A DNA stretch of 64,000 nt from Herbidospora daliensis (GTDB lineage Bacteria; Actinomycetota; Actinomycetes; Streptosporangiales; Streptosporangiaceae): contig NZ_BBXF01000013.1 in the NCBI RefSeq assembly GCF_001570585.1, forward strand, positions 1 to 64,000, written 5' to 3'. The notes beneath the pieces were generated by a model that saw nothing but the letters and a program-made list of their open reading frames with translations, had not been told where the DNA came from and searched no databases. Positions 51,094 to 64,000 of the stretch are shown one piece after another. How positions within the stretch are numbered: the stretch's first letter is position 1; each line of letters starts with the position of its first letter. The position numbers and the translations under genes are program-made.

Positions 51094-51109
51094 GTAACGT
51101 ATGTGAAAC
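51094..51109 (+). promoter_or_regulatory. GlnR-type box upstream of glnA2
   Basis: GTAAC (51094-51098), 6 nt, GAAAC (51105-51109) fits the actinobacterial GlnR half-box pattern gTnAC-n6-GaAAC exactly. It lies 56 bp before the TTG start of a glutamine synthetase gene. No clear second box follows at the usual spacing. Confidence 0.6.
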
Positions 51110-51165
51110 ACACAAGGGGCACACTGGTAGGTGTCCAGACCTGGAACTTTCGTGAGGTAGTCGCC

Positions 51166-52527
51166 TTGGACCGCCAGCAGGAATTCGTCCTCCGCACGCT
51201 TGAAGAGCGCGACATCCGGTTCATCCGGCTCTGGTTCACCGACGTCCTCGGTTTCCTGAAGTCCGTGGCCATCGCGCCGGCCGAGCTCGAAGGCGCCTTC
51301 GCCGAGGGCATCGGCTTCGACGGCTCGGCCATCGAGGGCTTCTCCCGCGTCTACGAGTCGGACATGCTCGCCAAGCCCGACCCGTCGACCTTCCAGATCC
51401 TCCCGTGGCGCAGCGAGACCCCGGGCGCGGCCCGGATGTTCTGCGACATCCTGATGCCCGACGGCTCCCCGTCGCACGCCGACCCCCGCTGGGTGCTCAA
51501 GCGCACCCTGGCCAGGGCCGCCGACATGGGCTTCACCTTCTACACCCACCCCGAGGTCGAGTTCTTCCTGCTCAGGAACCGCCCCGAGAAGGGCGTCAGG
51601 CCCGAGCCGATCGACGACGGCGGCTACTTCGACCACACGCCCCACAGCGCCGGCCACGACTTCCGCCGCAACGCGATCATGATGCTGGAGGCCATGGGCA
51701 TCTCCGTGGAGTTCAGCCACCACGAGGGCGCCCCCGGCCAGCAGGAGATCGACCTCCGCTACGCCGACGCGTTGTCGACCGCCGACAACATCATGACGTT
51801 CCGCCTGGTCATGAAGGAGGTCGCGCTCGAACAGGGCGTCTGGGCCTCGTTCATGCCCAAGCCGTTCACCGAATACCCCGGCTCCGGCATGCACACCCAC
51901 ATGTCGCTGTTCGAGGGCGACCGCAACGCCTTCTACGAGCCCGGCTCCGACTACCAGCTCTCCAAGGTCGGCCGCTCCTTCATCGGCGGCCTGCTCAAGC
52001 ACGCCGCCGAGATCACCGCCGTGTGCAACCAGTGGGTCAACTCCTACAAGCGGCTGTGGGGCGACACCGAGGCCATCGCGGGCGCGGGCGGCGAGGCCCC
52101 CTCCTACATCTGCTGGGGCCACAACAACCGCTCGGCCCTGGTGCGGGTGCCGATGTACAAGCCGCACAAGGGCGGCTCGACCCGCATCGAGTTCCGCTCG
52201 CTCGACTCGGCGTGCAACCCCTACCTGGCGTACGCGATGATCCTGGCGGCCGGGCTGAAGGGCATCGAAGAGGGCTACGACATCCCCGCGGGGGCCGAAG
52301 ACGACGTGTGGGCGCTGACCTCGGGGGAGCGGCGGGCGCTGGGCATCCACCCGCTGCCGCAGTCGCTCGACGAGGCGATCACGGCGATGGAGCACTCGGA
52401 GCTCGCGGCCGAGACGCTCGGGGAGCACGTGTTCGACTACTTCCTGCGCAACAAGCGGTCGGAGTGGCGCGAGTACCGGCGTCAGGTGACGGAGTTCGAG
52501 CTGGGACGCTACCTGCCGGTCCTCTGA
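51166..52527 (+). CDS. glnA2: Glutamine synthetase-like enzyme, GlnA2 type
   Basis: A 453-residue GSI-family enzyme. TTG 51166 is chosen because the family begins (M)DRQQEFVLRTLEERDIRF and GAGG lies 8 nt upstream; an upstream frame to 51103 adds nothing conserved. Catalytic motifs are GFDGSAIEGF, HPEVEFFLL, HHEGAPGQQEIDLRYADAL, PGSGMHTHMSLF and CWGHNNRSALVRVP. The adenylylation loop of typical GlnA (NLYDLPPEE) is absent; here the segment is GYDIPAGAEDD. By resemblance to streptomycete GlnA2 the substrate may be polyamines (gamma-glutamylation), not ammonia. A GlnR-like box precedes it. Its last 19 bp overlap the convergent TPR gene. Confidence 0.9.
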   Translation: MDRQQEFVLRTLEERDIRFIRLWFTDVLGFLKSVAIAPAELEGAFAEGIGFDGSAIEGFSRVYESDMLAKPDPSTFQILPWRSETPGAARMFCDILMPDGSPSHADPRWVLKRTLARAADMGFTFYTHPEVEFFLLRNRPEKGVRPEPIDDGGYFDHTPHSAGHDFRRNAIMMLEAMGISVEFSHHEGAPGQQEIDLRYADALSTADNIMTFRLVMKEVALEQGVWASFMPKPFTEYPGSGMHTHMSLFEGDRNAFYEPGSDYQLSKVGRSFIGGLLKHAAEITAVCNQWVNSYKRLWGDTEAIAGAGGEAPSYICWGHNNRSALVRVPMYKPHKGGSTRIEFRSLDSACNPYLAYAMILAAGLKGIEEGYDIPAGAEDDVWALTSGERRALGIHPLPQSLDEAITAMEHSELAAETLGEHVFDYFLRNKRSEWREYRRQVTEFELGRYLPVL

Positions 52528-53621
52528 TGCCGGGTGAGCATCGGCACCAACGCCGCCACGAACCAGGCGACGTGGAGCAGGGTGACGACGAGCCACGCGC
52601 GTTCGTTCGTCACCTGTGCGGCCGCCATCACGATGGCGGTCAGCATCAGGCCGGCGGTGACCGGCAGGTAGACGCGTAGCGCCCAGCCTGCCGTGAGGAA
52701 CCGCCAGGTCTGCCCGGGGCCGAGCCACCAGCGCACGACCAGCCAGACGAGCAGGCCCAGGGCGGCGACGACACCCCCGGCGGCGGCCGCCGCCCCGGGG
52801 GAGGGCGGCCGCCCCTCGTCCAGCACGGGGAAGCCGAGCCACATCGTGGCGGCGAAGGGCAGGAAGCACAGCCAGGCCGCCAGGACGTTCGCCGCGATGG
52901 CGAGCCGGCCCGGGAGCGTGAGGTGGAGCTCACGGGACACGGCCCGCCAGCGCTGCACGGCGGCGCCGACTCTGTCGCCGCCGCGCCGGATCCTGAAAGC
53001 CCGGAAGCCCAGGAACCCGGCCGCCGTCAGGGCCGCCATGATCACGACCCCTGCCAGGGGAGACCGGTCCGGGGGCCGGTCGACGCCCAGCAGGTCCTCG
53101 ATCAGGCCGCCCAGCCACTTCGTGACGGGGATCCAGGTCAACGTGACGACGACGGCCGTCAGGGCCGCGGCCCACGTCCAGGAGCGGGGCTTCTCCACCG
53201 GTTCGTCGGGCACCGGCTCGTCCGCCTTCTCGGCGTGGTGCTCCGCTTCGAGCAGCAGGTCGCGGGCGGGGTCGGCGGCGTAGGCCTTCGCCAGCGCCTG
53301 GTTGGCCATCGGGTCGTCGGGATCGAGCTCGACCGCGCGGCGGCCGTAGGAGATGGCCTGGGTGACGTCGCCCAGCAGGCGGAACGTCCAGGAGGCGAGG
53401 GCGAGGTGGTCGGCCCGGAGGTCGGGGGAGACGATCATCGCCCGGTCGATCGCCGCGCGGGCGGCGCGGGGGTCGCCCTGGAGGATGTGAACGTGCGCCG
53501 AGAGGAGGACGGGGTTGGGGTCGTCGGGGTACTTCTCCATCAGGGCGTCCACTTTGAGGCGGGCCTGACCGTAGTCTTCGAGGACGCATAATTCGCTGAT
53601 CGAGTCGTACTCATCCTCCAT
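52509..53621 (-). CDS. TPR-containing multi-pass membrane protein
   Basis: A 370-residue protein. Residues 1-115 carry about three TPR-like helical hairpins (ISYGRRAVELDPDDPMANQA is the clearest). An acidic linker follows, then five or six membrane helices (about 150-365). It is the last gene of a minus-strand run, 37 bp after the TIR gene. It may dock other cluster proteins at the membrane. The function is unknown and the link to the cluster rests on position only. The 3' end overlaps glnA2. Confidence 0.7.
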   Translation of the reverse strand: MEDEYDSISELCVLEDYGQARLKVDALMEKYPDDPNPVLLSAHVHILQGDPRAARAAIDRAMIVSPDLRADHLALASWTFRLLGDVTQAISYGRRAVELDPDDPMANQALAKAYAADPARDLLLEAEHHAEKADEPVPDEPVEKPRSWTWAAALTAVVVTLTWIPVTKWLGGLIEDLLGVDRPPDRSPLAGVVIMAALTAAGFLGFRAFRIRRGGDRVGAAVQRWRAVSRELHLTLPGRLAIAANVLAAWLCFLPFAATMWLGFPVLDEGRPPSPGAAAAAGGVVAALGLLVWLVVRWWLGPGQTWRFLTAGWALRVYLPVTAGLMLTAIVMAAAQVTNERAWLVVTLLHVAWFVAALVPMLTRHQRTGR

Positions 53622-53658
53622 TTCTCCAGCTTAATCAGCTGATTTCCGTTATAGGCGT

Positions 53659-54759
53659 TCAGCGGATGACCCACTGGCTGATCAGGCCGTTGGAGTCCTG
53701 CAGCGAGCTGAGCGCCTTGCTCATCTTTCCGAGCGGTTTCGCCAGGTCGCGGCTGATGCCCTTGGCGCCGTCGAGGTTGCGGAGCAGTTCGTCGAGGCCG
53801 GCGACGGCCGGTTGCATGGTGTCGGCCAGTTCGCGCATGACCTTGACGAACGACGCCCGTTCCTCCGGGGTCGCGGTGCCCGAGTCCTGCTCGTACTCGC
53901 GGATGGCCGCCAGGATGGCCGGGTTGATGGTGACGACCTGGTCGGCGTACCGGGTCGAGACGGCGACCAGCCGATCGGCGACCGGGTCCATTTCGTCGGC
54001 GAACTCCCGCAGGAGGGCGAGCCGCCCGGCGAAGCCGTGGCCGGCCTGGTCGCTCTCCTGGATCCGGGCCGCCATCGGCGTCACCACGACCCCCAGCTCG
54101 GTCAGGGTCGTGCGCAGTTCGTCGATGGTCGAGGCCCACGCCGGCACGGCCTTCTCGGCCTCGGCCATGACGTCGACGATGCCGGGGCCCTCGCCCGCCC
54201 AGGCGTCGCCGGCCAGTTCCTCAGGGGTCGGCAGGGCCGGCGGGTTCTCCTGCAGGTTCTCCGCGATCCTGACGAGCCGGCCCGCCAGGGCGTGCACGGC
54301 CGCGCGGTAGGCGGCCGAGTTCTCGTCGAGGAGGCGGAGCTCGCGCCAGTCCTGGAAGTGGGTGCGGCGGACCAGCGCGACGATCTCGTCGTCGTCCTCC
54401 CCGGTGTCGAGCTGGCGGATGGGGGCGTACACGATCGGCAGGAAGAGCTCCTTCACGCCGAGGCTCTCGGCCTTCCCCGCGAACCGGAGCAGTTCCCGGC
54501 GGCACTCGTGGCTCCGCAGGTAGCGGGTGGTGATGATCGGGATGAAGAACGTGGTGGACTGCAGTGCCTGATCGATGCGCTGACGCCATTCGTCGCCCCA
54601 CTCGATGCCCTCGCGGTCGACGAAGATCTCCAGGTCGTCGCCGGTGAGGAGGGCGTACTCCTCGCGGACGCTCTCGGCGAGGCGGAGCAGGCGGCCGCCC
54701 TCGGCCTGGTCGTCGCGGTGTGTGTAGCTCCAGAAGCCGGCTGCGTTGGTCGCATTCAT
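53659..54759 (-). CDS. TIR domain protein
   Basis: A 366-residue protein. Residues 7-140 are a TIR domain: FWSYTHRDD (strand A), LEIFVDREGIEWGDEWRQRI (BB-loop region), STTFFIPIITTRYLRS and the SxxCxxE motif with Glu89 in SHECRRELLRF, the catalytic position of NAD-cleaving TIRs. Residues 180-366 are helical with no known fold. Intact Glu suggests NADase or cyclic ADP-ribose synthesis. ATG 54759 is 62 bp after the ADP-ribosylglycohydrolase stop. With the Hsp70/GTPase/GAP1 genes upstream it looks like the effector of a conflict system. Confidence 0.87.
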   Translation of the reverse strand: MNATNAAGFWSYTHRDDQAEGGRLLRLAESVREEYALLTGDDLEIFVDREGIEWGDEWRQRIDQALQSTTFFIPIITTRYLRSHECRRELLRFAGKAESLGVKELFLPIVYAPIRQLDTGEDDDEIVALVRRTHFQDWRELRLLDENSAAYRAAVHALAGRLVRIAENLQENPPALPTPEELAGDAWAGEGPGIVDVMAEAEKAVPAWASTIDELRTTLTELGVVVTPMAARIQESDQAGHGFAGRLALLREFADEMDPVADRLVAVSTRYADQVVTINPAILAAIREYEQDSGTATPEERASFVKVMRELADTMQPAVAGLDELLRNLDGAKGISRDLAKPLGKMSKALSSLQDSNGLISQWVIR

Positions 54760-54821
54760 GCGGGGGAGCCTATTCGGGTGTACGTGACTAAAGTGAAGAA
54801 AGTCGTGCGACTCCGGCCTTT

Positions 54822-55706
54822 TCAGGATTTGCGGGCCGGCCGCAACCAGCCGGGCAGCGGTTCGCGGCGGCTCAACCACTTGGGCGGCAGCGTGACCTGC
54901 GGTGCGGCCGCGACGATGCCGCCGACGATCGCGCACGTCGTGTCGACGTCGCCGCCCGCCGAGGCCGTCGTCCACATGGCCCGTTCGAAGTCGCCGCGTT
55001 CCCGGGCCGCGACCCACAACGTGAACGGGACCGTGTCGTGCGCGGTCACCCGGCGGCCGTTGCCGAGCATCCGGGCGGCCAGGCCCGGGTCGGCGATCGT
55101 GAGCAGCTGCCGCGCCTCGGCGAGGCCGTCGCGGACCAGGCCCGGCGCGACGTGGGCCATGACCTGGTCGAGGAAACGTCCCGGCGGGAGCGACGGGTCG
55201 AGCGCCGCCGCGACGGCCACGGCGACCGCCCCCGCGACCGCTTCGGGGTGGGCATGGGTGACCTCGGCGGACAAGGCCGCCTCCGCGGCTGCTCTGGCCG
55301 GGTCGCCGGCGAACCAGGCGCCCAGCGGGGCGACGCGCATCGCGGCGCCGTTGCCCCAGGAGCCCGTGCCGTCGAACAGGCCGGTGGCGAGCTCGCGCCA
55401 GTCGCCACCCTCTCTCACCAGGCGCAGCAGCCGGTTGGTGGCCGGGCCGTAGCCCCGGTCGAAGTCGTGGCGGGCGGCGAAGGCGTCGGCGAGGTCGTCC
55501 TGGTCGACGGCGCCTCTTCTGGTCAGGACGTCGACGACCGAGCAGGCCATCTCGGTGTCGTCCGTCCACTGCCAGGGGGCCGGGGGGAGTGTACGGGCCG
55601 ACAGGTGGGGGCGGTTGGCGGGGACGAAGAACTGGGAGCCGAAGGCGTCGCCGAGGGCGAGGCCGAGCAGGGAGGCGTGCGCGAGGGAGGGGGACATCCC
55701 TGCCAT
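54822..55706 (-). CDS. ADP-ribosylglycohydrolase family protein
   Basis: A 294-residue DraG/ARH-fold enzyme with LGLALGDAFGSQ near the start, the metal-binding WTDDTEM (about 47-53) and the second metal motif GGDVDTTCAIVGGIVAA (about 246-262). Family members remove ADP-ribose from proteins, nucleic acids or small molecules, using two Mg ions. It starts 4 bp after the membrane GTPase stop and is followed by a TIR gene, an unusual pairing that puts an ADP-ribose-processing enzyme next to a likely NAD-cleaving one. ATG 55697 is an alternative start. Confidence 0.9.
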   Translation of the reverse strand: MAGMSPSLAHASLLGLALGDAFGSQFFVPANRPHLSARTLPPAPWQWTDDTEMACSVVDVLTRRGAVDQDDLADAFAARHDFDRGYGPATNRLLRLVREGGDWRELATGLFDGTGSWGNGAAMRVAPLGAWFAGDPARAAAEAALSAEVTHAHPEAVAGAVAVAVAAALDPSLPPGRFLDQVMAHVAPGLVRDGLAEARQLLTIADPGLAARMLGNGRRVTAHDTVPFTLWVAARERGDFERAMWTTASAGGDVDTTCAIVGGIVAAAPQVTLPPKWLSRREPLPGWLRPARKS

Positions 55707-55710
55707 TCGA

Positions 55711-57333
55711 TCATGTTCTGGTGGTGAACCAGAGGATCGCGGCGGCCACCGCGCCCGCGCTCAGCAGCGCGCTGGCCGCGAACAGCAGCCGCCGCACCAC
55801 CGTGTAGCTCAGCGGCGGGCGGCCCGCCGGGCGGGACCCGGGCCGCCACGGTTCCCCCGCCGCACCATCCGCCTTCCGCTCGCCGGTCAGCCCGGTCAGC
55901 CACGTCACCAGCCCCGCGATCTCGTCGGGTTTCGGCGGCAGCCCCGACGTCGTGTAGCGCACCTCCGACCCCCGGTTCGCCAGGTCCCTGACCAGGTTCC
56001 CCATCCCCATCGTCGTCAGCCACGCCCGGGGGTCGGCGGCGGCCCCCTGGCCCGTCGTTGTCCGGTCGAGGAGGTCGCCCTTGGTCACCACGACCGCGAT
56101 CCGCCGCTGGTGGCCTCCGTCGGCCCGGGAGGAGAGCTCGTTGCGGACCCGGTGCACCGTGTCGGCCGGGTCCTCCCGCGACGGCACCACGCCGCCCGCC
56201 GCCAGCAGCTCGCGGTCGGCCGGGACCAGGCTGTCCTGGACGGCCGGCAGCGCGAACGGGTCGATGAGCAGCACCATCGCCTCGCCGTGCGCCAGGTATC
56301 CCATCGCCTCCACCCGGCTGGCCCCCGTGTAGTGCTCTCCCGAGGGGTCGAACAGGTAGAGGATGCGAGCGGACACGTCGAGGATGACGGCCTTCGGCGG
56401 TTGGGTGCCGGTCTTGGTCATGGTCCCGGCCGCCAGCTGGTTCCGCAGGCGGAGGAACGTCTGCTCGTCCCCCTGGTCGACGAACCGGGCCCCGGACGTC
56501 TCGCGCAGCGCGTCGACGGCCACCGCGAGGAAGGTCGTCTTCCCGGCGTCGGGGCCGCCCACCAGGGGGACCGGTTCGACCCGCACCTTGCCGATCTTCC
56601 CCGGCAACGTCCGGCCGCAGTGGGGGCACAACGCCCGCAGGCGGTGGCGGCCGAGCAGGATCGTCGTGGGCAGCCGGGCTCCGCACCGGCACACGTGCCG
56701 GAACGCGCCGTTCCGGTCGGGGCGCAGGGCCCGGTGCTGGGCGCCGCACGACGGGCAGGCGTAGATCGGCCGGGCGATGCGGGCGTAACAGCCCGGGTAG
56801 GGGCACGCCTGGAGGATGCGCCGCAGCAGCATGACCGACTGCTCGGCCCCGCGCAGCACCCCGACGAACGCCAGCCACGCCAGCAGGCCCGTGACCGCCG
56901 TCACCAGGTAGGCGGCCGTGACCAGCAGCGCGACCACGCTCAGCGGGAGCAGCGCGGCCAGCAGGCCGGCCACCACGGCCAGCCACAGCGGGAAGAGCAC
57001 GTAGCGGCGCTCGTCCGACATCAGCAGCTTGGTCAGGGCGCGCACGACCCGCCGGACCCGCCCGTCGACGACCGGGACCGCGCCGGCCAGCACCGACCAC
57101 CAGTCGTGCCAGACCTGGGAGACCAGGTAGTGGCGGTAGGCGGGTTCGGCTCCCTCAGGCGGGCCGCGTACCCCCTGGTCGGGCAGCAGCACGCGGGCGG
57201 CCGTCGCGAAGTACGCCGCCAGCGCCCCCAGCACCGCCACCACCACGGTCGCCGCGAAGACGACCGGGAAGACGAACGCGAAGGCCGCCCACATGGCGAC
57301 GAGCCAGAAGCCCACGAGGACGAGCCACCACAT
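55711..57333 (-). CDS. Membrane zinc-ribbon GTPase (double-GTPase type)
   Basis: A 540-residue protein. N-terminal membrane helices are at about 2-45 and 115-155. Cysteine pairs of zinc ribbons (CPYPGC, YACPSCGAQH, CRCGARL, CPHCGRTL) span about 176-260. A TRAFAC-like GTPase domain follows (about 265-480) with Walker A VGGPDAGKTTF and the TKxD motif VVVTKGDLLD. A C-terminal membrane helix lies near 515-535. It fits the DO-GTPase families found beside GAP1 proteins. Start ATG 57333 directly abuts the GAP1 stop. It may relay a membrane signal to the downstream effector genes. Confidence 0.82.
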   Translation of the reverse strand: MWWLVLVGFWLVAMWAAFAFVFPVVFAATVVVAVLGALAAYFATAARVLLPDQGVRGPPEGAEPAYRHYLVSQVWHDWWSVLAGAVPVVDGRVRRVVRALTKLLMSDERRYVLFPLWLAVVAGLLAALLPLSVVALLVTAAYLVTAVTGLLAWLAFVGVLRGAEQSVMLLRRILQACPYPGCYARIARPIYACPSCGAQHRALRPDRNGAFRHVCRCGARLPTTILLGRHRLRALCPHCGRTLPGKIGKVRVEPVPLVGGPDAGKTTFLAVAVDALRETSGARFVDQGDEQTFLRLRNQLAAGTMTKTGTQPPKAVILDVSARILYLFDPSGEHYTGASRVEAMGYLAHGEAMVLLIDPFALPAVQDSLVPADRELLAAGGVVPSREDPADTVHRVRNELSSRADGGHQRRIAVVVTKGDLLDRTTTGQGAAADPRAWLTTMGMGNLVRDLANRGSEVRYTTSGLPPKPDEIAGLVTWLTGLTGERKADGAAGEPWRPGSRPAGRPPLSYTVVRRLLFAASALLSAGAVAAAILWFTTRT

Positions 57334-59511
57334 CTACCGTTCTCCGCGCCCGAACAGCCGTCTCCGCTGTCCGGCCAGTTCCCGCAGGCCGGCGGCCAGT
57401 TCGGCGTCCTGTTTGAAGCGGGCCTCCATGGAGCCGAAGCGGGTCCAGTTGTTGACCTCGGAGCGGGCCCAGGCGTCCAGGCGGGGTTCGATCACCCCGG
57501 CGACGCGCATCCTGATCGCGATCTCCAGGAGGGCCATCTGCTGGTCGCGGTTGCGGCGCGGTTTGAGCCATTCGGGGATCAGCCAGCGGCGGGTCGCGTC
57601 GGTGACGGCCTTGGCGACCGTCGAGCGGAAGCGGGGGTCGCGGGTGGCGAGGACCTTGGCGGCCGTGGCCCGGGTCAGTTCGGCGAGTTCGGCGTTGCCC
57701 TCGCGGGTGAGGTCGGTGAGGCGGTCGATGGCGGTGGCGGCCTCCACGGGCGTGGGGGCCGCGGGGAGGCGGGCGGCGATCAGGGTCGCCTCGGCGTCGT
57801 CGGCGGGGAAGCCGGGCAGCCCGTCGCGGACGCGTTCGGCCAGGGCCAGGGCCTCGCCGCTGGACAGGCCCGCCTTCACGAACGCGCGGCCGGGCAGTTC
57901 GCCCAGGGTGGGGCTGGCGTCCATGCGGGGGCCGAGCAGGTCGACCAGGCGGCCGATCTCGCCCGGCGTGGGCTGGGTGGTCCACATCGACGGGAGGGCC
58001 TGTTCGCGGAAGCCGTCGTAGGCGCGGTCCATGAGCTCGGCCGTGGTCTCGACGCGGTCGCGGCCGCCGTGCAGGGTCTGCCAGCGCAGCACCGCCACGC
58101 CCGTGCGGGGGGCGCGCCGCCAGTCGCGGCCGGCTCCGGCGAGCAGGCCGCACAGGGTGGCGCTCACCTCGCCGGGGGCGGCCTCCAGCCCGGCCACGTA
58201 GCCGGCGGTCATCGCCTCGCGCCAGGTCGCGGGCACGCGGGCCAGTTCGGCCGCCGCCTCCTCCTGGTCGCCCGGCACGGCCCGCGCCGCCGCCGACTCC
58301 ACCTCGGCCGCGTCGACGGGCAGGTCGCAGGCGTCGGCCACCCGCACGATCCCGGCGATCTGGGCGGGGGTGAGGGCCGCCCGCAACGCGGCGGTGGCCT
58401 CGGCGCCGAGCGCGGAGGCGTGGCCGGGGGGCGGGAGCCGTACCGGAAGGGGCAGTGCCGGGTCGCGCAGCGCGAGCGACACGCACCGGGCCGCGCCCTC
58501 GGCGGCGTGCACGGCCACCGCGGCGGCCAGGTCGTAGGTCAGCAGCCCGGCCCGGGACGCCAGCCGCTGCCACGCCCAGTCGGGCAGGCCGGCCGCCGAG
58601 AGCCGGGCGACGGCGGTCTGCTCCTCGGGGGAGACGGTGTGGTCGCCCCGGCAGAGCGCCAGCAGCGCGGCCGCCGTCTCGGGGTCGTCGCCCAGTTCGC
58701 CGAGCGCGTCGAGGCCGTCGAGGTCGCCGCGCCGCCAGAACCCGGCGACCGTCCCGGCGAACCGCCCGGTCCGCACCGGCGCGGGCGGTTCGTCGAGCCG
58801 GATCACGGTCGCGTCGACGTCGGGCGGGATCCACACGTCGGGGGTGGTCCCGGCGATGACCTGGCCGGAGGAGGCCGGGTCGGCCGTGTACGTCACGAAC
58901 GACAACCGGATCGCCGACGCCCACGGCAACGAGAACGAGACGACCGCGATCCACCGCACCACCTCGGCCACGTCGGCGCCGACCAGCACCAGCCGCCCGT
59001 GCCCCCGGGTGAGGAACAGCCGCACCGCCTCCAGCAGCCCGCCGAGCCGCACGTAGGCGTCCGGGCCGAGCGCGGCCAGCCACGCCACCAGCCCCTCGGG
59101 GTCGAGGACCGGACCGGGCGCCGGCTCCAGCACGGGCAGCTCCGGACCGTCGGCGGGCGCGGACGCCCACCAATCGGCCTCCCAGAACTCGATCGGCCGC
59201 AGCCCGACCAGCTCGCCCTCGCCGAGCAGCACGGCGTGCGCCAGGAAGTTCCCGTACCGTCCTGAATAGTCCTGCCCCAGGTAGACGCACCGGGCGAGCA
59301 GGCCGCCCCCGTAGGCCATGGAGACCGGCAGCGCCGCGATCTCCTCAGGCGTCGGCGCGAGCGGGGCGTCGGGCGGCGGCTGGTAGACCAGGTAGGGCGC
59401 GCTGCGCTCCCGCAAGACCGGCGGCACGCCGGGCGTCTCGGCGGTGATCTGGAACCCCGAACGGCCCGAGGGCCCCGATTCGGCCGACGTGTAGTGGAGC
59501 TGCCAGGCCAT
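57334..59511 (-). CDS. GTPase-associated protein 1 (GAP1-N2 type)
   Basis: A 725-residue protein. The N-terminus (about 1-150) carries the GAP1-N2 pattern: WQLHYTSAESGPSGRSGFQI, AYGGGLLARCVYLGQDYSGRYGNFLAHAVLL. The middle and C-terminal parts are mostly helical with no catalytic motif that I recognise. GAP1 proteins occur with paired GTPases in bacterial conflict systems; their mechanism is unknown. It lies between two GTPase genes, 3 bp after one and abutting the next, which matches the family's usual neighbourhood. Confidence 0.8.
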   Translation of the reverse strand: MAWQLHYTSAESGPSGRSGFQITAETPGVPPVLRERSAPYLVYQPPPDAPLAPTPEEIAALPVSMAYGGGLLARCVYLGQDYSGRYGNFLAHAVLLGEGELVGLRPIEFWEADWWASAPADGPELPVLEPAPGPVLDPEGLVAWLAALGPDAYVRLGGLLEAVRLFLTRGHGRLVLVGADVAEVVRWIAVVSFSLPWASAIRLSFVTYTADPASSGQVIAGTTPDVWIPPDVDATVIRLDEPPAPVRTGRFAGTVAGFWRRGDLDGLDALGELGDDPETAAALLALCRGDHTVSPEEQTAVARLSAAGLPDWAWQRLASRAGLLTYDLAAAVAVHAAEGAARCVSLALRDPALPLPVRLPPPGHASALGAEATAALRAALTPAQIAGIVRVADACDLPVDAAEVESAAARAVPGDQEEAAAELARVPATWREAMTAGYVAGLEAAPGEVSATLCGLLAGAGRDWRRAPRTGVAVLRWQTLHGGRDRVETTAELMDRAYDGFREQALPSMWTTQPTPGEIGRLVDLLGPRMDASPTLGELPGRAFVKAGLSSGEALALAERVRDGLPGFPADDAEATLIAARLPAAPTPVEAATAIDRLTDLTREGNAELAELTRATAAKVLATRDPRFRSTVAKAVTDATRRWLIPEWLKPRRNRDQQMALLEIAIRMRVAGVIEPRLDAWARSEVNNWTRFGSMEARFKQDAELAAGLRELAGQRRRLFGRGER

Positions 59512-59514
59512 GAC

Positions 59515-60609
59515 CTACCTCCGCACGCCGTCGAGCATCTTGAACCGGTGCAGGAGCCACAACAGCGGATCCTCCACCCGATAGGGGCGGATGCCGCCGG
59601 GGCCGACCTCGGCCTCCCCGGGCACCTCGCCGAGCGACGACAACGCGAAGAACGCGAAGTCGGCGTAGTTCTGCCGCAGGTAGCGGTCGAGCCCGCCGGC
59701 CTGCCAGCCCTCCAGCAGCGCCCGGACCTGCTCGTGCACGCCCTCGTGGTCGTCGAGGTCGAAGGCCCCCGACGGGACCCGCGACCGGTGCAGCGCCGAG
59801 CCGGGCTCCCGCCGCAGGGCGTCGGCCTTGCTGAGCGCCACCGCCACGGGGATCCTCAACGGCCCGTCTCCGGTACGCAGCAGCTCCGTCACCCGGGCGA
59901 TCACGTTCACCGGGTCGCTGTCGGGGTCGTCCGACGGCTTCTCCAGCGAGGCGGGGTCGACCAGGAACACCACGGCGTCGGAGGCCCGCAGGTAGCGCAG
60001 GTGCCGTTCGGTCACCTCGCGGCTGCGCAGGTCCTCGCCCGCCGTGTCGAACAGCACCAGCGTCAGCGCGGCCCGGCGGCTGCGGAACCGGCCCTTCACC
60101 GTCCGGGTAAGCAGGTAGACGAGGGGGTCGCGCAGGGTGTCGGTCACCGCCGACTGGGTGGCCCGCAGCAGCCGGTGCTCGCCGAACAGGGGGCGGGCGA
60201 AGTCGCGGCGGTAGCGTTCGATCGTGCGGTCGTCGCACGGCACCAGCGACGCGTCGAGCTCCGCGCCGACCCGGTTCATCAGCTCGTGCAGCAGCACCGC
60301 GATGTAGGTGCTCTTGCCCGACCCCTTCGCCCCGACCAAGGCGACGATCCGGCCGGGGTTGGCGCAGTATTCGGCGGCCAGCCCGCTGTGGCACTCGGGG
60401 CAGACCCGCCGCCCGGTGTCGCGTCCGCAGGTCGGGCAGTCGGCCCGGCGGCCCGGCCGCCGCACCTGGAACACCGGCGGCAACGACGGGGGAGCGCCGC
60501 CCCGCAGCCTGCCGAGCAGTTCGTCGGCCACCGGCTCGCACCCCCCGGCGCACCGGAACGCGATCCGGTCCTCGGCCACCTTGGCGAAGCAGTAGGGGCA
60601 GGTGATCAT
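59515..60609 (-). CDS. Zinc-ribbon GTPase (double-GTPase partner)
   Basis: A 364-residue soluble protein. The N-terminus has zinc-ribbon cysteines (ITCPYCFAKV, CAGGCEP, CPTCGRDTG, CPECHSG). A Ras-like/TRAFAC GTPase domain follows: P-loop ALVGAKGSGKSTY (about 87-99), switch-II LVLFDTAGEDL, and G4-like VALSKADAL. It starts at ATG 60609, overlapping the FN3-like gene's stop (ATGA). Unlike the second GTPase of the cluster it has no membrane helix, so the two probably act as a soluble/membrane pair. Confidence 0.83.
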   Translation of the reverse strand: MITCPYCFAKVAEDRIAFRCAGGCEPVADELLGRLRGGAPPSLPPVFQVRRPGRRADCPTCGRDTGRRVCPECHSGLAAEYCANPGRIVALVGAKGSGKSTYIAVLLHELMNRVGAELDASLVPCDDRTIERYRRDFARPLFGEHRLLRATQSAVTDTLRDPLVYLLTRTVKGRFRSRRAALTLVLFDTAGEDLRSREVTERHLRYLRASDAVVFLVDPASLEKPSDDPDSDPVNVIARVTELLRTGDGPLRIPVAVALSKADALRREPGSALHRSRVPSGAFDLDDHEGVHEQVRALLEGWQAGGLDRYLRQNYADFAFFALSSLGEVPGEAEVGPGGIRPYRVEDPLLWLLHRFKMLDGVRR

Positions 60610-63065
60610 GACCCCACCTTGAGCCGTCGCACCGGCGGGCCGACCAGCTCGACGCCGTCGTCCGCGAAGCACTTCAGCCAGTACGGCTTCGCCCGCCGGG
60701 GCGCGGCCGTCTCGAACCGGGCCGGGGTGCGCACGCCGGTCCATTCCGCCAGCACGACGCCCTGGTCCTCCGCCAGCGGCTCCACCCGCCCCGGTCGCAG
60801 CACCAGCGCCAGCCGGGCCAGCGTGACCGGCCGATCGGCGTCGACCTCGACGACCAGCCGCCGCCGCCAGAACGGGCCGGTCCGGGAGAGGTCGTACCGC
60901 ACCGGGCTCGCCGCCTCCAGCGACCGCGACAGGCCCGGCCCGCGCAGCCGCACCCCGCCCACCAGCGCCGTCGGCACCACCTCGACCGTGACGGGCTCGT
61001 CCTCGGCGACGTCCAGCCGGATCCCGCCCTGCGCCCGGTAGGAGGCCGCGCTGACCAGCGTCGCCGTCCCGTTCACCACCACCTCGACCTCGGGCACGTC
61101 GGCCGGCCAGTCGAGCCCGACGTGCACGGCCCGGCCGAGGCGCTCGGCGGTCAGCGAGCGCGGCGGGGTCAGGTTGACGTGCTCGCGAGTGCCGCCGATC
61201 GTGGCCAGGTCGCCCGCCACGGTCAGCGCCAGCAGCACCCCCGAGGCGGCCCTGACCAGGTGGCCGTCGGGGGCGGGCAGCACCGCCAGGGCACGGCCGG
61301 TGGCGCGGGCCTCGGCGAGCGAGACCGTCGTGCCGTAGGGCCACGGGGGAGCTGACTCCAGCAGCCGGAACTCCACGTGACCGGCGGGCGGCGGCGCGCA
61401 GCGCAGCAGCACCTGCCCGTCGGGCGCGGGTTCGACGGTGAACTCGGCGACCGGCACGGGCCGGGCGTGCGGGGTGGCGCGGGCGCGCACCCCGGGCGTC
61501 GTGACCCCACCGGAATAGACCGCTTTGACCAGGTAGACGTAGCCGGTGCCGTTGCGCACCCGCCGGTCGGCGAAGCCGTCGCCGTCGATCTCGATCGGCG
61601 TGCCGTCGCGGGTCACCACGACCCCGGCCGCGGCGGCGGGCCGCGTCCAGCCGCCGGTGACCAGGCCGTCGCCCGCCCGCACCCGCACGTCGGCGACCTC
61701 GGGCCGCACGGTCACGGCCGGTGCGGTGACGGCGCGGGCGGCGGCCGTGCCCCGGTGGGCCACCACGCCGTAGACGACCGGCTCGTCGATCGGCGGGGCG
61801 GGGTCGGTCACGCGGAAGGGCTCGCCGCCGTCGATGGGCAGGCCGTTTCTCAAGATTTCGTACGATATTTCGCCCGCCTTCGACCCCGACGGCCGCCACG
61901 TGACGACCACCGAGGCGTCGTCGGCCGTGGCCGTCACCTCCTGGGCGGGCAGCGGGGCCAGCCGCCGCTGCAGGTCGGCCGCGCCGGGGAGGTCGGGCAC
62001 CCGGCGCAGCGCGTCGGCCAGCGCGAGCCACGCCTCGTCGGAGTCGGCGGCGGCCAGCGCCCTGTCTCGCAACGCCTCGGCGGCGGCCAGCCGGGCCCGG
62101 ATCTCGGCGGCCAGCTCTGCGGCGGGCCCGTCGAGGTCGGTCAGGGTGGCGGCCAGGTCGGCGGCGGCGTGGATCTCCCCGGCGTCGGCCAGCTCCCGCA
62201 GCCGCGCCGCCGGTCCGCCCGCGATCCCGGTCTCCTGCCTGACCGCGAACACCAGCCGACGTGCCTCGCCCGATTCGAGCCCCAGGTCGTCGACGGCGTA
62301 GCGGAGCAGGGTGTCGTCGTAGGGGTGCTCGCGCACCCGTTCGCGCAACCGGGTCACCAGGTCGTGGCGGATCAGCGCCGCCGGGTCGGACTTCAGCGCG
62401 GTCAGCAGGGTGTCGGCCGCGGTCGTCCACGGTCCCCGGGTGCGGCGCCGCCAGTCGGCCTCGACCGCGGCGAGCGGCAGGCTGACCGGCCGCAGCACCC
62501 GGTAGGGCCCGGCGTCGCCGAGCACGAAGGCGGCCAGGTGGCGCACGCCCAGCGTGTCGAGCGCGTCGCGGACCCGGTCGTAGGCGGCGTAGGGCGAGCC
62601 GGTCGCCAGCGCCTCGGGCTCCTCGACGGCGACGCCCAGCTCGTGGGCCAGCGGGCGCAGGTCGCAGCCGGTGGAGCGGGCGATGCCCTCGGCCACCTCG
62701 GGGGTGACCATCCGCAACCTCCCGGCCGCGTCGTCGAGCCGCCGGCGGGCCTCCTCGCGCCGGGCCCGGTCGCGCTCCCCGGCCTCCGCGAGCGCGCCGC
62801 GCAGCGGTCCCAGGTCGCCGCCGGCCGCCGCGTCGAAGACGGGGGCCAGCCGCGCGTGGTCGGCTTCGAGCCGGTCGACGAGCCGCCGGAACTTCAGCTG
62901 GCCGCGCTGCCGCCGCCAGCACTGCCGCACGGCTTTGACGGTGGCGCCGACGTCGGCCAGGTCGGCGCCCAGGGCGTACCGGACCAGGAGGTCGTCGGGC
63001 GGAGCGCCCGCCGCGCGGGCCGGATCGAGCACCTCCCGCACGTAGCGGGCCTCGTCGAAGGGCAT
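60606..63065 (-). CDS. Hsp70-linked protein with FN3-like domains
   Basis: An 819-residue cytoplasmic protein without signal peptide. The N-terminal half (1-370) is helical and Arg/Asp-rich with repeat-like segments such as EGIARSTGCDLRPLAHELGV. Two fibronectin-III-like beta-sandwiches follow (about 378-460, VVVTWRPSGSKAGEISYEIL; about 468-550, NGTGYVYLVKAVYSGG) and then further beta-rich domains. The family is not named with certainty. It starts 7 bp after the Hsp70 stop and overlaps the GTPase gene, so it probably works as client, scaffold or sensor for the Hsp70 protein. Confidence 0.7.
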   Translation of the reverse strand: MPFDEARYVREVLDPARAAGAPPDDLLVRYALGADLADVGATVKAVRQCWRRQRGQLKFRRLVDRLEADHARLAPVFDAAAGGDLGPLRGALAEAGERDRARREEARRRLDDAAGRLRMVTPEVAEGIARSTGCDLRPLAHELGVAVEEPEALATGSPYAAYDRVRDALDTLGVRHLAAFVLGDAGPYRVLRPVSLPLAAVEADWRRRTRGPWTTAADTLLTALKSDPAALIRHDLVTRLRERVREHPYDDTLLRYAVDDLGLESGEARRLVFAVRQETGIAGGPAARLRELADAGEIHAAADLAATLTDLDGPAAELAAEIRARLAAAEALRDRALAAADSDEAWLALADALRRVPDLPGAADLQRRLAPLPAQEVTATADDASVVVTWRPSGSKAGEISYEILRNGLPIDGGEPFRVTDPAPPIDEPVVYGVVAHRGTAAARAVTAPAVTVRPEVADVRVRAGDGLVTGGWTRPAAAAGVVVTRDGTPIEIDGDGFADRRVRNGTGYVYLVKAVYSGGVTTPGVRARATPHARPVPVAEFTVEPAPDGQVLLRCAPPPAGHVEFRLLESAPPWPYGTTVSLAEARATGRALAVLPAPDGHLVRAASGVLLALTVAGDLATIGGTREHVNLTPPRSLTAERLGRAVHVGLDWPADVPEVEVVVNGTATLVSAASYRAQGGIRLDVAEDEPVTVEVVPTALVGGVRLRGPGLSRSLEAASPVRYDLSRTGPFWRRRLVVEVDADRPVTLARLALVLRPGRVEPLAEDQGVVLAEWTGVRTPARFETAAPRRAKPYWLKCFADDGVELVGPPVRRLKVGS

Positions 63066-63072
63066 CGCGGGG

Positions 63073-64000
63073 TCAGCTGACCGTCAGGTGCGACAGGCTC
63101 GCCCGCGACTCGGCGACGTCCTCCTCCGTCATTCCGCCGATCTGCACGTTCAGGCTGAGCTCCTGGCCGGTCTCGTGCTCCCGGGCGGTGACGTGCAGCA
63201 GCCCCGAGGTGTCGAGGGTGAACGTCACCTCGATCGGGAACCCGGCCGGTTTCCCCGGCGGGATCGCCAGGTCGCCCTCGGCGATCCGGTTGTTGTCCTC
63301 GACCGCCTCCGACGCCTCGGCCCCGGCCTGCTCCATCACCTCGATGGCGACCCGGGTCTGGTAGTCGTCGAGGGTCGCGAAGCCCTCGGTCACGTCGGCG
63401 GGCAGCGGGTCGTTGGCCTGGACGAGATGGGCGACGTACTCGCGGCGGGTGTTCACCGAGACGGCCTTGATGCCGAAGGCCCGCGAGGCGACGGTCTTGA
63501 TCGTGCGCCCGGCGATGCGCTGCTGCTCGCCCGAGCTGAGGCCCGCGCGGGCGGCCATCTCCTCGGCCTGTTCGCGGGCTCCGCCCGCCAGCAGTCTCCG
63601 GTACGTCTCCTCGAAGGCGTAGAGCGCCGCGCCCTTGGCCACCGCGAGGTCGGGGTCCTGCAGCCGGGGCTGCACACCGAGCTCCTTGGCCAGCGTCTCG
63701 GCCACGGCCGGCATCTTCGCCGAGCCGCCCACCAGCACCAGGTGGTCGAACGAGTCGACCCCCTTCGACCGGGCGGTCGCCAACGTCCGGCGGGTGATCT
63801 CGACGGTGCGGTCGAGCAGGTCGCGGGTGAGGCGTTCGAAGTCCTCGCGCGACACCTCGGCCTTGGCGACCCGGCCGTCGTGCATGACCCGGACGGTGTG
63901 CTTCGTGCGCGAGGTGAGCGACTTCTTCAGCTCCTCGGCGTCGCGGCGTAACTGCTGCTCGGTCTGCTTGTCGTCGAGCGGGTCGGTCACGTCGGGGTGC
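63073..64000 (-). CDS. Hsp70 family protein (N-terminus beyond window)
   Basis: The last 308 residues of an Hsp70-type chaperone; the ATPase N-terminus lies past the right edge. Visible are the end of the nucleotide-binding domain (LVLVGGSAKMPAVAETLAKE, VAKGAALYAFEE) and a substrate-binding beta domain (VTFTLDTSGLLHVTAREHET, LNVQIGGM). The long helical lid of DnaK is missing and an insert near KTVASRAFGIKAVS differs from DnaK, so this is an accessory Hsp70 and not the housekeeping one. It is the first visible gene of a tightly packed minus-strand operon with GTPases, GAP1, ADP-ribosylglycohydrolase and TIR genes. Confidence 0.87.
   Translation of the reverse strand, partial: HPDVTDPLDDKQTEQQLRRDAEELKKSLTSRTKHTVRVMHDGRVAKAEVSREDFERLTRDLLDRTVEITRRTLATARSKGVDSFDHLVLVGGSAKMPAVAETLAKELGVQPRLQDPDLAVAKGAALYAFEETYRRLLAGGAREQAEEMAARAGLSSGEQQRIAGRTIKTVASRAFGIKAVSVNTRREYVAHLVQANDPLPADVTEGFATLDDYQTRVAIEVMEQAGAEASEAVEDNNRIAEGDLAIPPGKPAGFPIEVTFTLDTSGLLHVTAREHETGQELSLNVQIGGMTEEDVAESRASLSHLTVS

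What the first reader, a model, noticed from the sequence alone, without database searches (positions are those of the whole stretch)
53659..64000. Seven-gene Hsp70 / GTPase / GAP1 / ADP-ribosylglycohydrolase / TIR operon: candidate conflict (defence) system
Seven minus-strand genes run in series: Hsp70, FN3-like protein, zinc-ribbon GTPase, GAP1, membrane zinc-ribbon GTPase, ADP-ribosylglycohydrolase, TIR protein. Junctions are 7 bp, ATGA overlap, 3 bp, 0 bp, 4 bp and 62 bp, so co-expression is near certain for the first six. GAP1 proteins with paired GTPases are known parts of NTP-dependent bacterial conflict systems. Adding an Hsp70/FN3 input arm and two NAD/ADP-ribose enzymes gives a full chain: sensing by chaperone and scaffold, GTPase switch, and NAD-based output. 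I do not know of a described system with this exact set.
Basis: partly seen in the sequence, partly recalled or inferred. Interest (0 to 1): 0.88.

Follow-up and report, generated by a model that had tools for sequence, protein, structure and literature searches.

The report
Known GTPase–chaperone operon, variable defence-gene tail

Summary
The seven genes and all six junctions are real. The genome is a Herbidospora. The first five genes, plus a GrpE gene just outside the window, form the GAP1-N2/DO-GTPase "HSP70 theme" predicted as a conflict system by Kaur et al. 2020 (PMC7159879). These six genes occur in the same order in 39 of 47 fetched loci, 34 of 39 from other genera. The ADP-ribosylglycohydrolase (ARH) and TIR genes do not belong to that unit. 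This ARH type sat beside GAP1 in 0 of 20 other-genus genomes that had both; TIR_2 lay beside GAP1 in 2 of 43 genomes. In 7 Herbidospora genomes the stretch between the last GTPase gene and glnA is a variable slot: ARH intact in 4, TIR in 2, an intact TPR gene in 1; in two, Septu-type genes start 13 bp behind the GTPase stop. So the core is a new member of a known kind, its mechanism untested. The exchangeable slot is the one notable part.

The parts
63073..64000 (-). Hsp70, C-terminal part; the full gene is 527 aa and runs to C13:64656. Nucleotide-binding domain plus beta substrate-binding part, ends without a lid; no LLLD-type linker motif
   Evidence: the reading of lid and linker rests on the sequence and recalled DnaK anatomy
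60606..63065 (-). FNIII-type protein (819 aa): N-terminal part without Pfam match, FN3-like region about 390-595
   Evidence: no Pfam hit; weak matches
59515..60609 (-). Zinc-ribbon DO-GTPase2, no TM stretch; GAKGSGKS, DTAG and SKAD motifs present
57334..59511 (-). GAP1 protein (GAP1-N2 + GAP1-M + C-terminal region)
   Evidence: no PDB relative
55711..57333 (-). Membrane zinc-ribbon DO-GTPase2; hydrophobic stretches 1-51, 110-162 and 515-538 (about 4 N-terminal and 1 C-terminal TM helices); GGPDAGKT, DPSG and TKGD motifs present
54822..55706 (-). ADP-ribosylglycohydrolase (ARH): accessory gene, first gene of the variable slot; TDDT and GGDVDT motifs intact
   Evidence: (nearest solved chains: ARH3)
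53659..54759 (-). TIR protein (TIR domain plus a C-terminal region without Pfam match above cut-off; CRRE at 86-89 holds the Glu expected for NADase TIRs, by recall): slot gene
52509..53621 (-). TPR protein with C-terminal hydrophobic stretches, third slot gene (not in the finding); intact only here among the 7 Herbidospora loci
51103..52527 (+). glnA, convergent: far border of the variable slot in Herbidospora
   Evidence: name from my reading of the sequence; not scanned against Pfam

Best explanation
The conserved unit is GrpE-Hsp70-FNIII-DO-GTPase-GAP1(N2)-membrane DO-GTPase, a member of the GAP1-N2 'HSP70 theme' that looks vertically inherited. Most likely mechanism (inferred from Kaur et al. 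and the domain set): the variable FNIII protein and the lidless Hsp70/GrpE pair bind a disturbed or foreign protein; GAP1 passes this to the soluble/membrane GTPase pair; GTP binding assembles a complex at the membrane. ARH, TIR and TPR behind it are accessory genes in a variable slot before glnA. ARH was probably in the slot in the ancestor of the genus and is probably co-transcribed; TIR has a separate history (later arrival or replacement) and would act by itself as an NAD-cleaving enzyme. Shown: gene content, order, conservation, slot turnover. Inferred: ages of the slot genes and every biochemical step.
For: Six-gene core in the same order and strand in 39 of 47 loci L003-L049; of the 8 exceptions 5 are cut by contig ends (L004, L011, L027, L028, L035), L009 lacks a GrpE hit, L037 and L047 are incomplete. 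The core matches the published description. ARH homologues (E<=1e-30) in 52 of 150 family genomes, 23 of them also with GAP1 (E<=1e-20); beside GAP1 in the 3 Herbidospora among these 23 and in none of the other 20 (compared by hand). 14 of 14 fetched ARH regions of other genera hold no core gene. TIR relatives (E<=1e-20) in 4 of 345 order genomes, 2 of them beside GAP1; one (60%) in a genome without a GAP1 hit. Slot turnover in 7 Herbidospora loci. TIR dS 0.81 between window and H. mongoliensis against 0.22-0.51 for core genes and ARH. GAP1 distances follow glnA (Spearman 0.86, 14 loci, pairs not independent).
Against: ARH starts 4 bp behind the GTPase stop in the window, H. sakaeratensis and H. 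solisilvae, with dN/dS 0.16-0.26, so it looks like a functional, coupled gene. ARH presence is weakly associated with GAP1 presence (23 of 48 versus 29 of 102, Fisher p 0.027, uncorrected for relatedness). A different ARH subfamily lies 2.0-5.5 kb upstream of GrpE in 8 of 43 scanned genomes (3 other genera). P0002 shows no DnaJ or TPR part, which the paper calls typical. I found no experimental test of a defence role of this class in the papers searched.
Confidence: 0.82

Rival explanations
1. One reading: one seven-gene system in which chaperone/FN3 sensing drives the GTPase switch and TIR plus ARH make and remove the NAD-derived output.
For: Near-zero junctions through ARH; ARH and TIR both keep catalytic motifs; TIR is listed as an effector in the sister GAP1-N1 systems (passage of section 28); H. 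mongoliensis also has ARH followed by TIR behind this operon.
Against: ARH intact in 4 of 7 and TIR in 2 of 7 Herbidospora loci, with the core intact wherever the contig covers it; 0 of 20 linked ARH in other genera; TIR_2 near GAP1 in 2 of 43 genomes; a TIR relative at 60% identity in a genome without a GAP1 hit.
Confidence: 0.06
2. Exchangeable effector slot: the core is a constant chassis and the genes placed directly behind GTPase2 (ARH, TIR, Septu PtuAB, TPR) are its swapped, co-expressed effectors, as in the 'constant core, variable effector' grammar of Kaur et al.
For: PtuA-type genes (PADLOC 4.4e-167 and 1.2e-162) start 13 bp behind GTPase2 in H. galbida and H. yilanensis, with PtuB next (3.6e-85 in H. 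galbida) and ARH remnants behind; ARH 4 bp behind GTPase2 in three genomes; core constant.
Against: PtuAB is known as a self-sufficient system (recalled); H. mongoliensis has a ricin-lectin/pectate-lyase gene in the same slot; H. cretacea has nothing called there; outside the genus the next called gene is on the opposite strand in 20 of 37 loci, and none of the 37 is ARH or TIR. Chance insertion beside an operon end fits as well.
Confidence: 0.18
3. The core is not a defence system but a membrane-linked protein-quality or envelope-stress system.
For: Place near glnE, its amidotransferase neighbour and/or glnA in 10 of 40 loci L010-L049; core genes under purifying selection in Herbidospora (pairwise dN/dS 0.05-0.29, like the flanking hydrolase and amidotransferase genes at 0.13-0.31; Hsp70 98% identical); GAP1 divergence follows glnA; no PADLOC hit for GrpE, Hsp70, FNIII, GAP1 and GTPase2 and only a weak one (mad8, 1.6e-4) for GTPase1. 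A paper on PSP stress systems cites a DO-GTPase as predicted to act in membrane stress (passage).
Against: Patchy presence: 48 of 150 family genomes, 8 of 298 in the phylum sample; FNIII, GAP1 and GTPase2 are the least conserved core proteins (84-95% against 98% for Hsp70); no HAIR or CIRCE site beyond shuffle level upstream (motifs recalled).
Confidence: 0.35

Closest known systems
GAP1-N2 GTPase-centric conflict systems, HSP70/GrpE theme (Kaur, Burroughs, Iyer, Aravind 2020, eLife 9:e52696)
   Same: GrpE, Hsp70, FNIII-type protein, zinc-ribbon DO-GTPase, GAP1-N2/M and a second DO-GTPase with about 4+1 TM helices; actinobacterial
   Different: No DnaJ or TPR domain detected on the FNIII protein; the ARH/TIR/TPR tail is not described for this theme in the text seen (0 occurrences of 'adp-ribosylglycohydrolase' in the main text)
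GAP1-N1 systems with TIR effectors (same paper, passages of section 28)
   Same: GAP1 + DO-GTPase with a TIR domain in the system
   Different: This GAP1 is type N2 (1.4e-38); TIR here is a separate, rarely linked gene; no EAD or GAAD family among the Pfam hits (whether Pfam holds all of them was not checked)
Septu (PtuA/PtuB)
   Same: Occupies the same slot in H. galbida and H. yilanensis
   Different: Not in the window; stands as its own system
ARH/DraG ADP-ribosylhydrolases (human ARH3, DraG)
   Same: Family and the motifs TDDT and GGDxDT
   Different: Relatives at 51-78% identity are scattered single genes in other genera of the family; substrate unknown

Membership tests
GAP1-N2 GTPase-centric system (Kaur et al. 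2020) | GAP1 protein with GAP1-N2 and GAP1-M domains | tested here: met
   GAP1-N2 132.5 bits (cut-off 24), GAP1-M 71.8 bits (cut-off 24)
GAP1-N2 GTPase-centric system (Kaur et al. 2020) | one or two DO-GTPases with N-terminal zinc ribbons | tested here: met
   DO-GTPase2 44.3 and 74.2 bits (cut-off 27); CxxC motifs before the P-loop and GTPase motifs
GAP1-N2 GTPase-centric system (Kaur et al. [quoted passage not shown]
   hydrophobic stretches 1-51 and 110-162 (each long enough for two helices) and 515-538; Kyte-Doolittle only
GAP1-N2 GTPase-centric system (Kaur et al. 2020) | FNIII-repeat protein | tested here: inconclusive
HSP70 theme of GAP1-N2 systems | HSP70 and GrpE genes in the operon | tested here: met
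   HSP70 3.3e-107, GrpE 6.8e-11, 1 bp overlap
HSP70 theme of GAP1-N2 systems | FNIII protein fused to DnaJ or TPR (stated as typical, not as defining) | tested here: not met
   no Pfam hit; TPR_19 in 1 of 28 members at E 0.014, DnaJ in none
HSP70 theme of GAP1-N2 systems | acts against invaders | not testable with these tools
   prediction of the paper; no experiment found in searches (open-licence PMC papers)
NAD-cleaving TIR proteins | TIR domain with catalytic Glu | tested here: inconclusive
   TIR_2 1.4e-9; CRRE at 86-89; position judged by recall, no PDB relative, no structure

The most novel reading that the evidence does not exclude
The 3' end of the GrpE-Hsp70-FNIII-GTPase-GAP1-GTPase operon works in Herbidospora as a docking slot: independent defence genes (Septu PtuAB, ARH, TIR) are placed a few bases behind the last GTPase stop, so that they come under the operon's transcription and possibly under its GTPase switch, and are swapped between species while the core stays fixed.
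Probability: 0.15. Interest if true: 0.6.

Novelty: new member of a known kind. Interest (0 to 1): 0.3.

Why it matters
The core is one more instance of a predicted class for which the searches made here found no experiment. Seven Herbidospora loci with a constant core and different tails are a natural comparison set: H. cretacea (no tail), H. solisilvae (ARH only), this genome (ARH, TIR, TPR) and H. galbida/H. yilanensis (Septu-type genes) would let one test whether the core acts alone and whether the genes behind it depend on it.

Tried and rejected
1. Seven genes as one conserved unit: rejected by neighbourhood data. 2. A recurrent ARH link: in 8 of 43 genomes (3 other genera) another ARH subfamily (31-33% identical in the 3 cases where BLAST matched) lies 2.0-5.5 kb upstream of GrpE. 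In all 8 an opposite-strand gene (ACT-like; label from reading, not a call) stands between it and GrpE, and in 6 of 8 it neighbours the same acyl-CoA-dehydrogenase-like gene (label likewise), so I took it as conserved chromosome order and did not count it as operon linkage. 3. Heat-shock control by HAIR or CIRCE boxes: 5 of 44 upstream stretches with a HAIR match at up to 4 mismatches against 3.4 in shuffles; CIRCE none at up to 5 mismatches. 4. Arms-race signal: pairwise dN/dS of the core 0.05-0.29 in Herbidospora, no higher than the flanking hydrolase and amidotransferase genes; whole-gene averages cannot exclude single selected sites. 5. TIR on mobile elements: no match in 50,697 phage records; 2 of 72,556 plasmid records, both over under half of the query at 30-33% identity. 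6. PDB relatives for GAP1, TIR and FNIII by single sequence: none. 7. Dropped rows: L001 (a piece of the window) from all counts; L027, L035 (contig ends) and L048 (GTPase2 not called) from the next-gene count. Loci L084-L088 were fetched but not analysed, as they repeat L003-L008 regions.
Full report
OBSERVATION. The seven minus-strand ORFs exist and the six junction lengths are exact. Pfam supports HSP70, two DO-GTPase2, GAP1-N2 with GAP1-M, ADP_ribosyl_GH and TIR_2. FN3 is only weakly supported. The window is positions 1-64000 of contig C13 (102,687 bp) of an 8.52-Mb genome. Of 7 loci with a GAP1 relative found by name, 6 are Herbidospora (83-95% identity) and one is a Blastocatellia MAG. 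Two genes were missed. GrpE overlaps the Hsp70 start by 1 bp just outside the window. A TPR protein with hydrophobic C-terminal stretches lies 37 bp behind TIR, followed by convergent glnA.

WHAT THE CORE IS. Kaur et al. 2020 (PMC7159879; seen: outline, section 29, part 1 of section 35, and search passages of other sections, 27 and 28 among them; [quoted passage not shown] About 14% of their neighbourhoods add HSP70 and GrpE. Here these parts are present (FNIII weakly), except that no DnaJ or TPR part was found on the FNIII protein.

CONSERVATION OF THE CORE. GAP1 relatives (E<=1e-20) occur in 48 of 150 sampled family genomes. In a sample of the phylum GAP1-N2 occurs in 8 of 298 genomes, the window's own included. 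I fetched 40 regions: 39 from other genera and one paralogue in a Herbidospora genome (L047). The weakest matches and some second copies were not fetched (for example in G001, G020, G088, G113, G134). With the 7 loci this gives 47 loci. The complete six-gene order on one strand is found in 39 of 47, and in 34 of the 39 from other genera. Ten of 40 loci L010-L049 also carry glnE, the neighbouring amidotransferase or glnA within the fetched stretch, and GAP1 and GTPase1 distances rise with glnA distances (Spearman 0.86 and 0.67 over 14 loci; pairs are not independent). This speaks for vertical descent, in part at a fixed place. Core genes are under purifying selection within Herbidospora (pairwise dN/dS 0.05-0.29). 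Hsp70 is the most conserved (98% in all five comparisons made); FNIII, GAP1 and GTPase2 are the least (84-95%).

THE TAIL. ARH homologues (E<=1e-30) occur in 52 of 150 family genomes. Of the 48 GAP1 genomes 23 have one. In the 3 Herbidospora it is beside GAP1; in the 20 from other genera it is on another contig or at least about 0.49 Mb away (coordinates compared by hand). Of 16 regions fetched, 14 are ARH regions of other genera; none holds a core gene, and I saw no neighbour common to them (first residues read by eye, not clustered). The other two regions are the TIR region L050 and the H. mongoliensis locus. Telling against my reading, ARH is somewhat commoner in GAP1 genomes (23 of 48 versus 29 of 102; Fisher p 0.027, uncorrected for kinship or genome size). 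Pfam models were run over 43 of the 48 GAP1-bearing genomes. TIR_2 (E<=1e-4) lies near GAP1 only in the window and H. mongoliensis (coordinates compared by hand). ADP_ribosyl_GH lies near it in 3 Herbidospora, and in 8 genomes of three other genera as a different subfamily upstream, behind an opposite-strand gene. Among 37 loci with a called gene behind GTPase2 (L010-L049 without L027, L035 and L048) the first gene is on the opposite strand in 20. In two of the other 17, L025 and L047, the 'next gene' is probably a piece of GTPase2 or a mis-assigned GAP1.

THE SLOT. Between GTPase2 and glnA the seven Herbidospora loci differ. This genome has ARH, TIR, TPR. H. sakaeratensis has ARH and a broken TPR gene, no TIR. 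H. solisilvae has ARH only. H. cretacea has 438 bp without a called gene. H. mongoliensis has a ricin-lectin/pectate-lyase gene, ARH and TIR; its contig ends behind TIR without glnA. H. galbida has a Septu pair (PtuA 4.4e-167, PtuB 3.6e-85) starting 13 bp behind GTPase2, then an ARH remnant and a broken TPR gene. H. yilanensis has PtuA (1.2e-162) at the same distance, a PtuB relative that is shorter as called (182 against 234 aa; itself not scanned against PADLOC) and ARH remnants. ARH identity between this genome and H. mongoliensis (85%) and its dS (0.51) match GTPase2 (86%, dS 0.49), so ARH is probably old in the genus. TIR is 64% identical with dS 0.81, so it has another history or was replaced. 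TIR relatives (E<=1e-20) exist in 4 of 345 order genomes, the window's own included. The 60% one is in a genome without a GAP1 hit at E<=1e-20 and has no core gene in the 16.3 kb held; the 24% one has none in the 4.0 kb held.

MECHANISM. Inferred: an FNIII/Hsp70/GrpE front end, GAP1 as coupler, and a soluble plus a membrane GTPase as switch, ending in assembly at the membrane. That chaperones can mediate phage sensing has a precedent in another system (bNACHT25 needs DnaJ; PMC12169576, abstract and outline seen). Whether the core is defence or stress is open; I put about one third on stress. TIR, if active, would cleave NAD by itself; ARH would remove ADP-ribose from an unknown target. The simple scan found no promoter-like or terminator-like site on the minus strand in 52400-57400; its one terminator-like site, between TIR and TPR, is on the plus strand, with 0.9 expected in shuffles. 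So read-through into ARH is likely and into TIR possible. The 62-bp ARH-TIR gap is A+T-rich for this genome (GC 0.56).

NOVELTY. New member of a known kind. Searches for earlier reports: (open-licence PMC papers only; listings seen). I found no paper on an HSP70-theme GAP1 operon with ARH/TIR, nor on a slot behind it; the supplements of Kaur et al. could not be read.

Noticed in passing
L004:6363-8356 (H. galbida) and L006:13812-15798 (H. yilanensis): Septu-type PtuA and PtuB genes placed 13 bp behind the membrane GTPase gene, in front of remnants of ARH; the L006 PtuB is shorter as called and was not itself scanned.
   Followed up: partly
L007:13885-15228 (H. mongoliensis): A ricin-lectin/pectate-lyase gene sits between the membrane GTPase gene and ARH.
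   Followed up: partly
L066-L072 and L029:17279-18214: In 8 genomes of three other genera another ADP-ribosylglycohydrolase subfamily lies 2.0-5.5 kb upstream of GrpE, behind an opposite-strand gene.
   Followed up: partly
L002:15134-15213 (C13:65133-65212, just outside the window): The gap between an alpha/beta-hydrolase gene and GrpE is strongly conserved in Herbidospora and holds the palindrome GGAAATTTCC in 4 of the 5 loci printed; a candidate control site of the operon.
   Followed up: no
L047 (second GAP1 locus in genome G083) and L049: A divergent second GAP1-N2/Hsp70 locus in a Herbidospora genome; L049 (another genus) has an additional Hsp70 gene upstream, as Kaur et al. describe for a subset.
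   Followed up: no
L037 (G062:C8): GAP1 and GTPase2 stand behind glnE without GrpE, Hsp70, FN3 or GTPase1 hits: a reduced core or an assembly effect.
   Followed up: no
plasmid records NZ_CP084267.1 and NZ_CP116698.1: Distant relatives (30-33%) of the N-terminal half of the TIR protein on large plasmids of Caballeronia and Agrobacterium.
   Followed up: no
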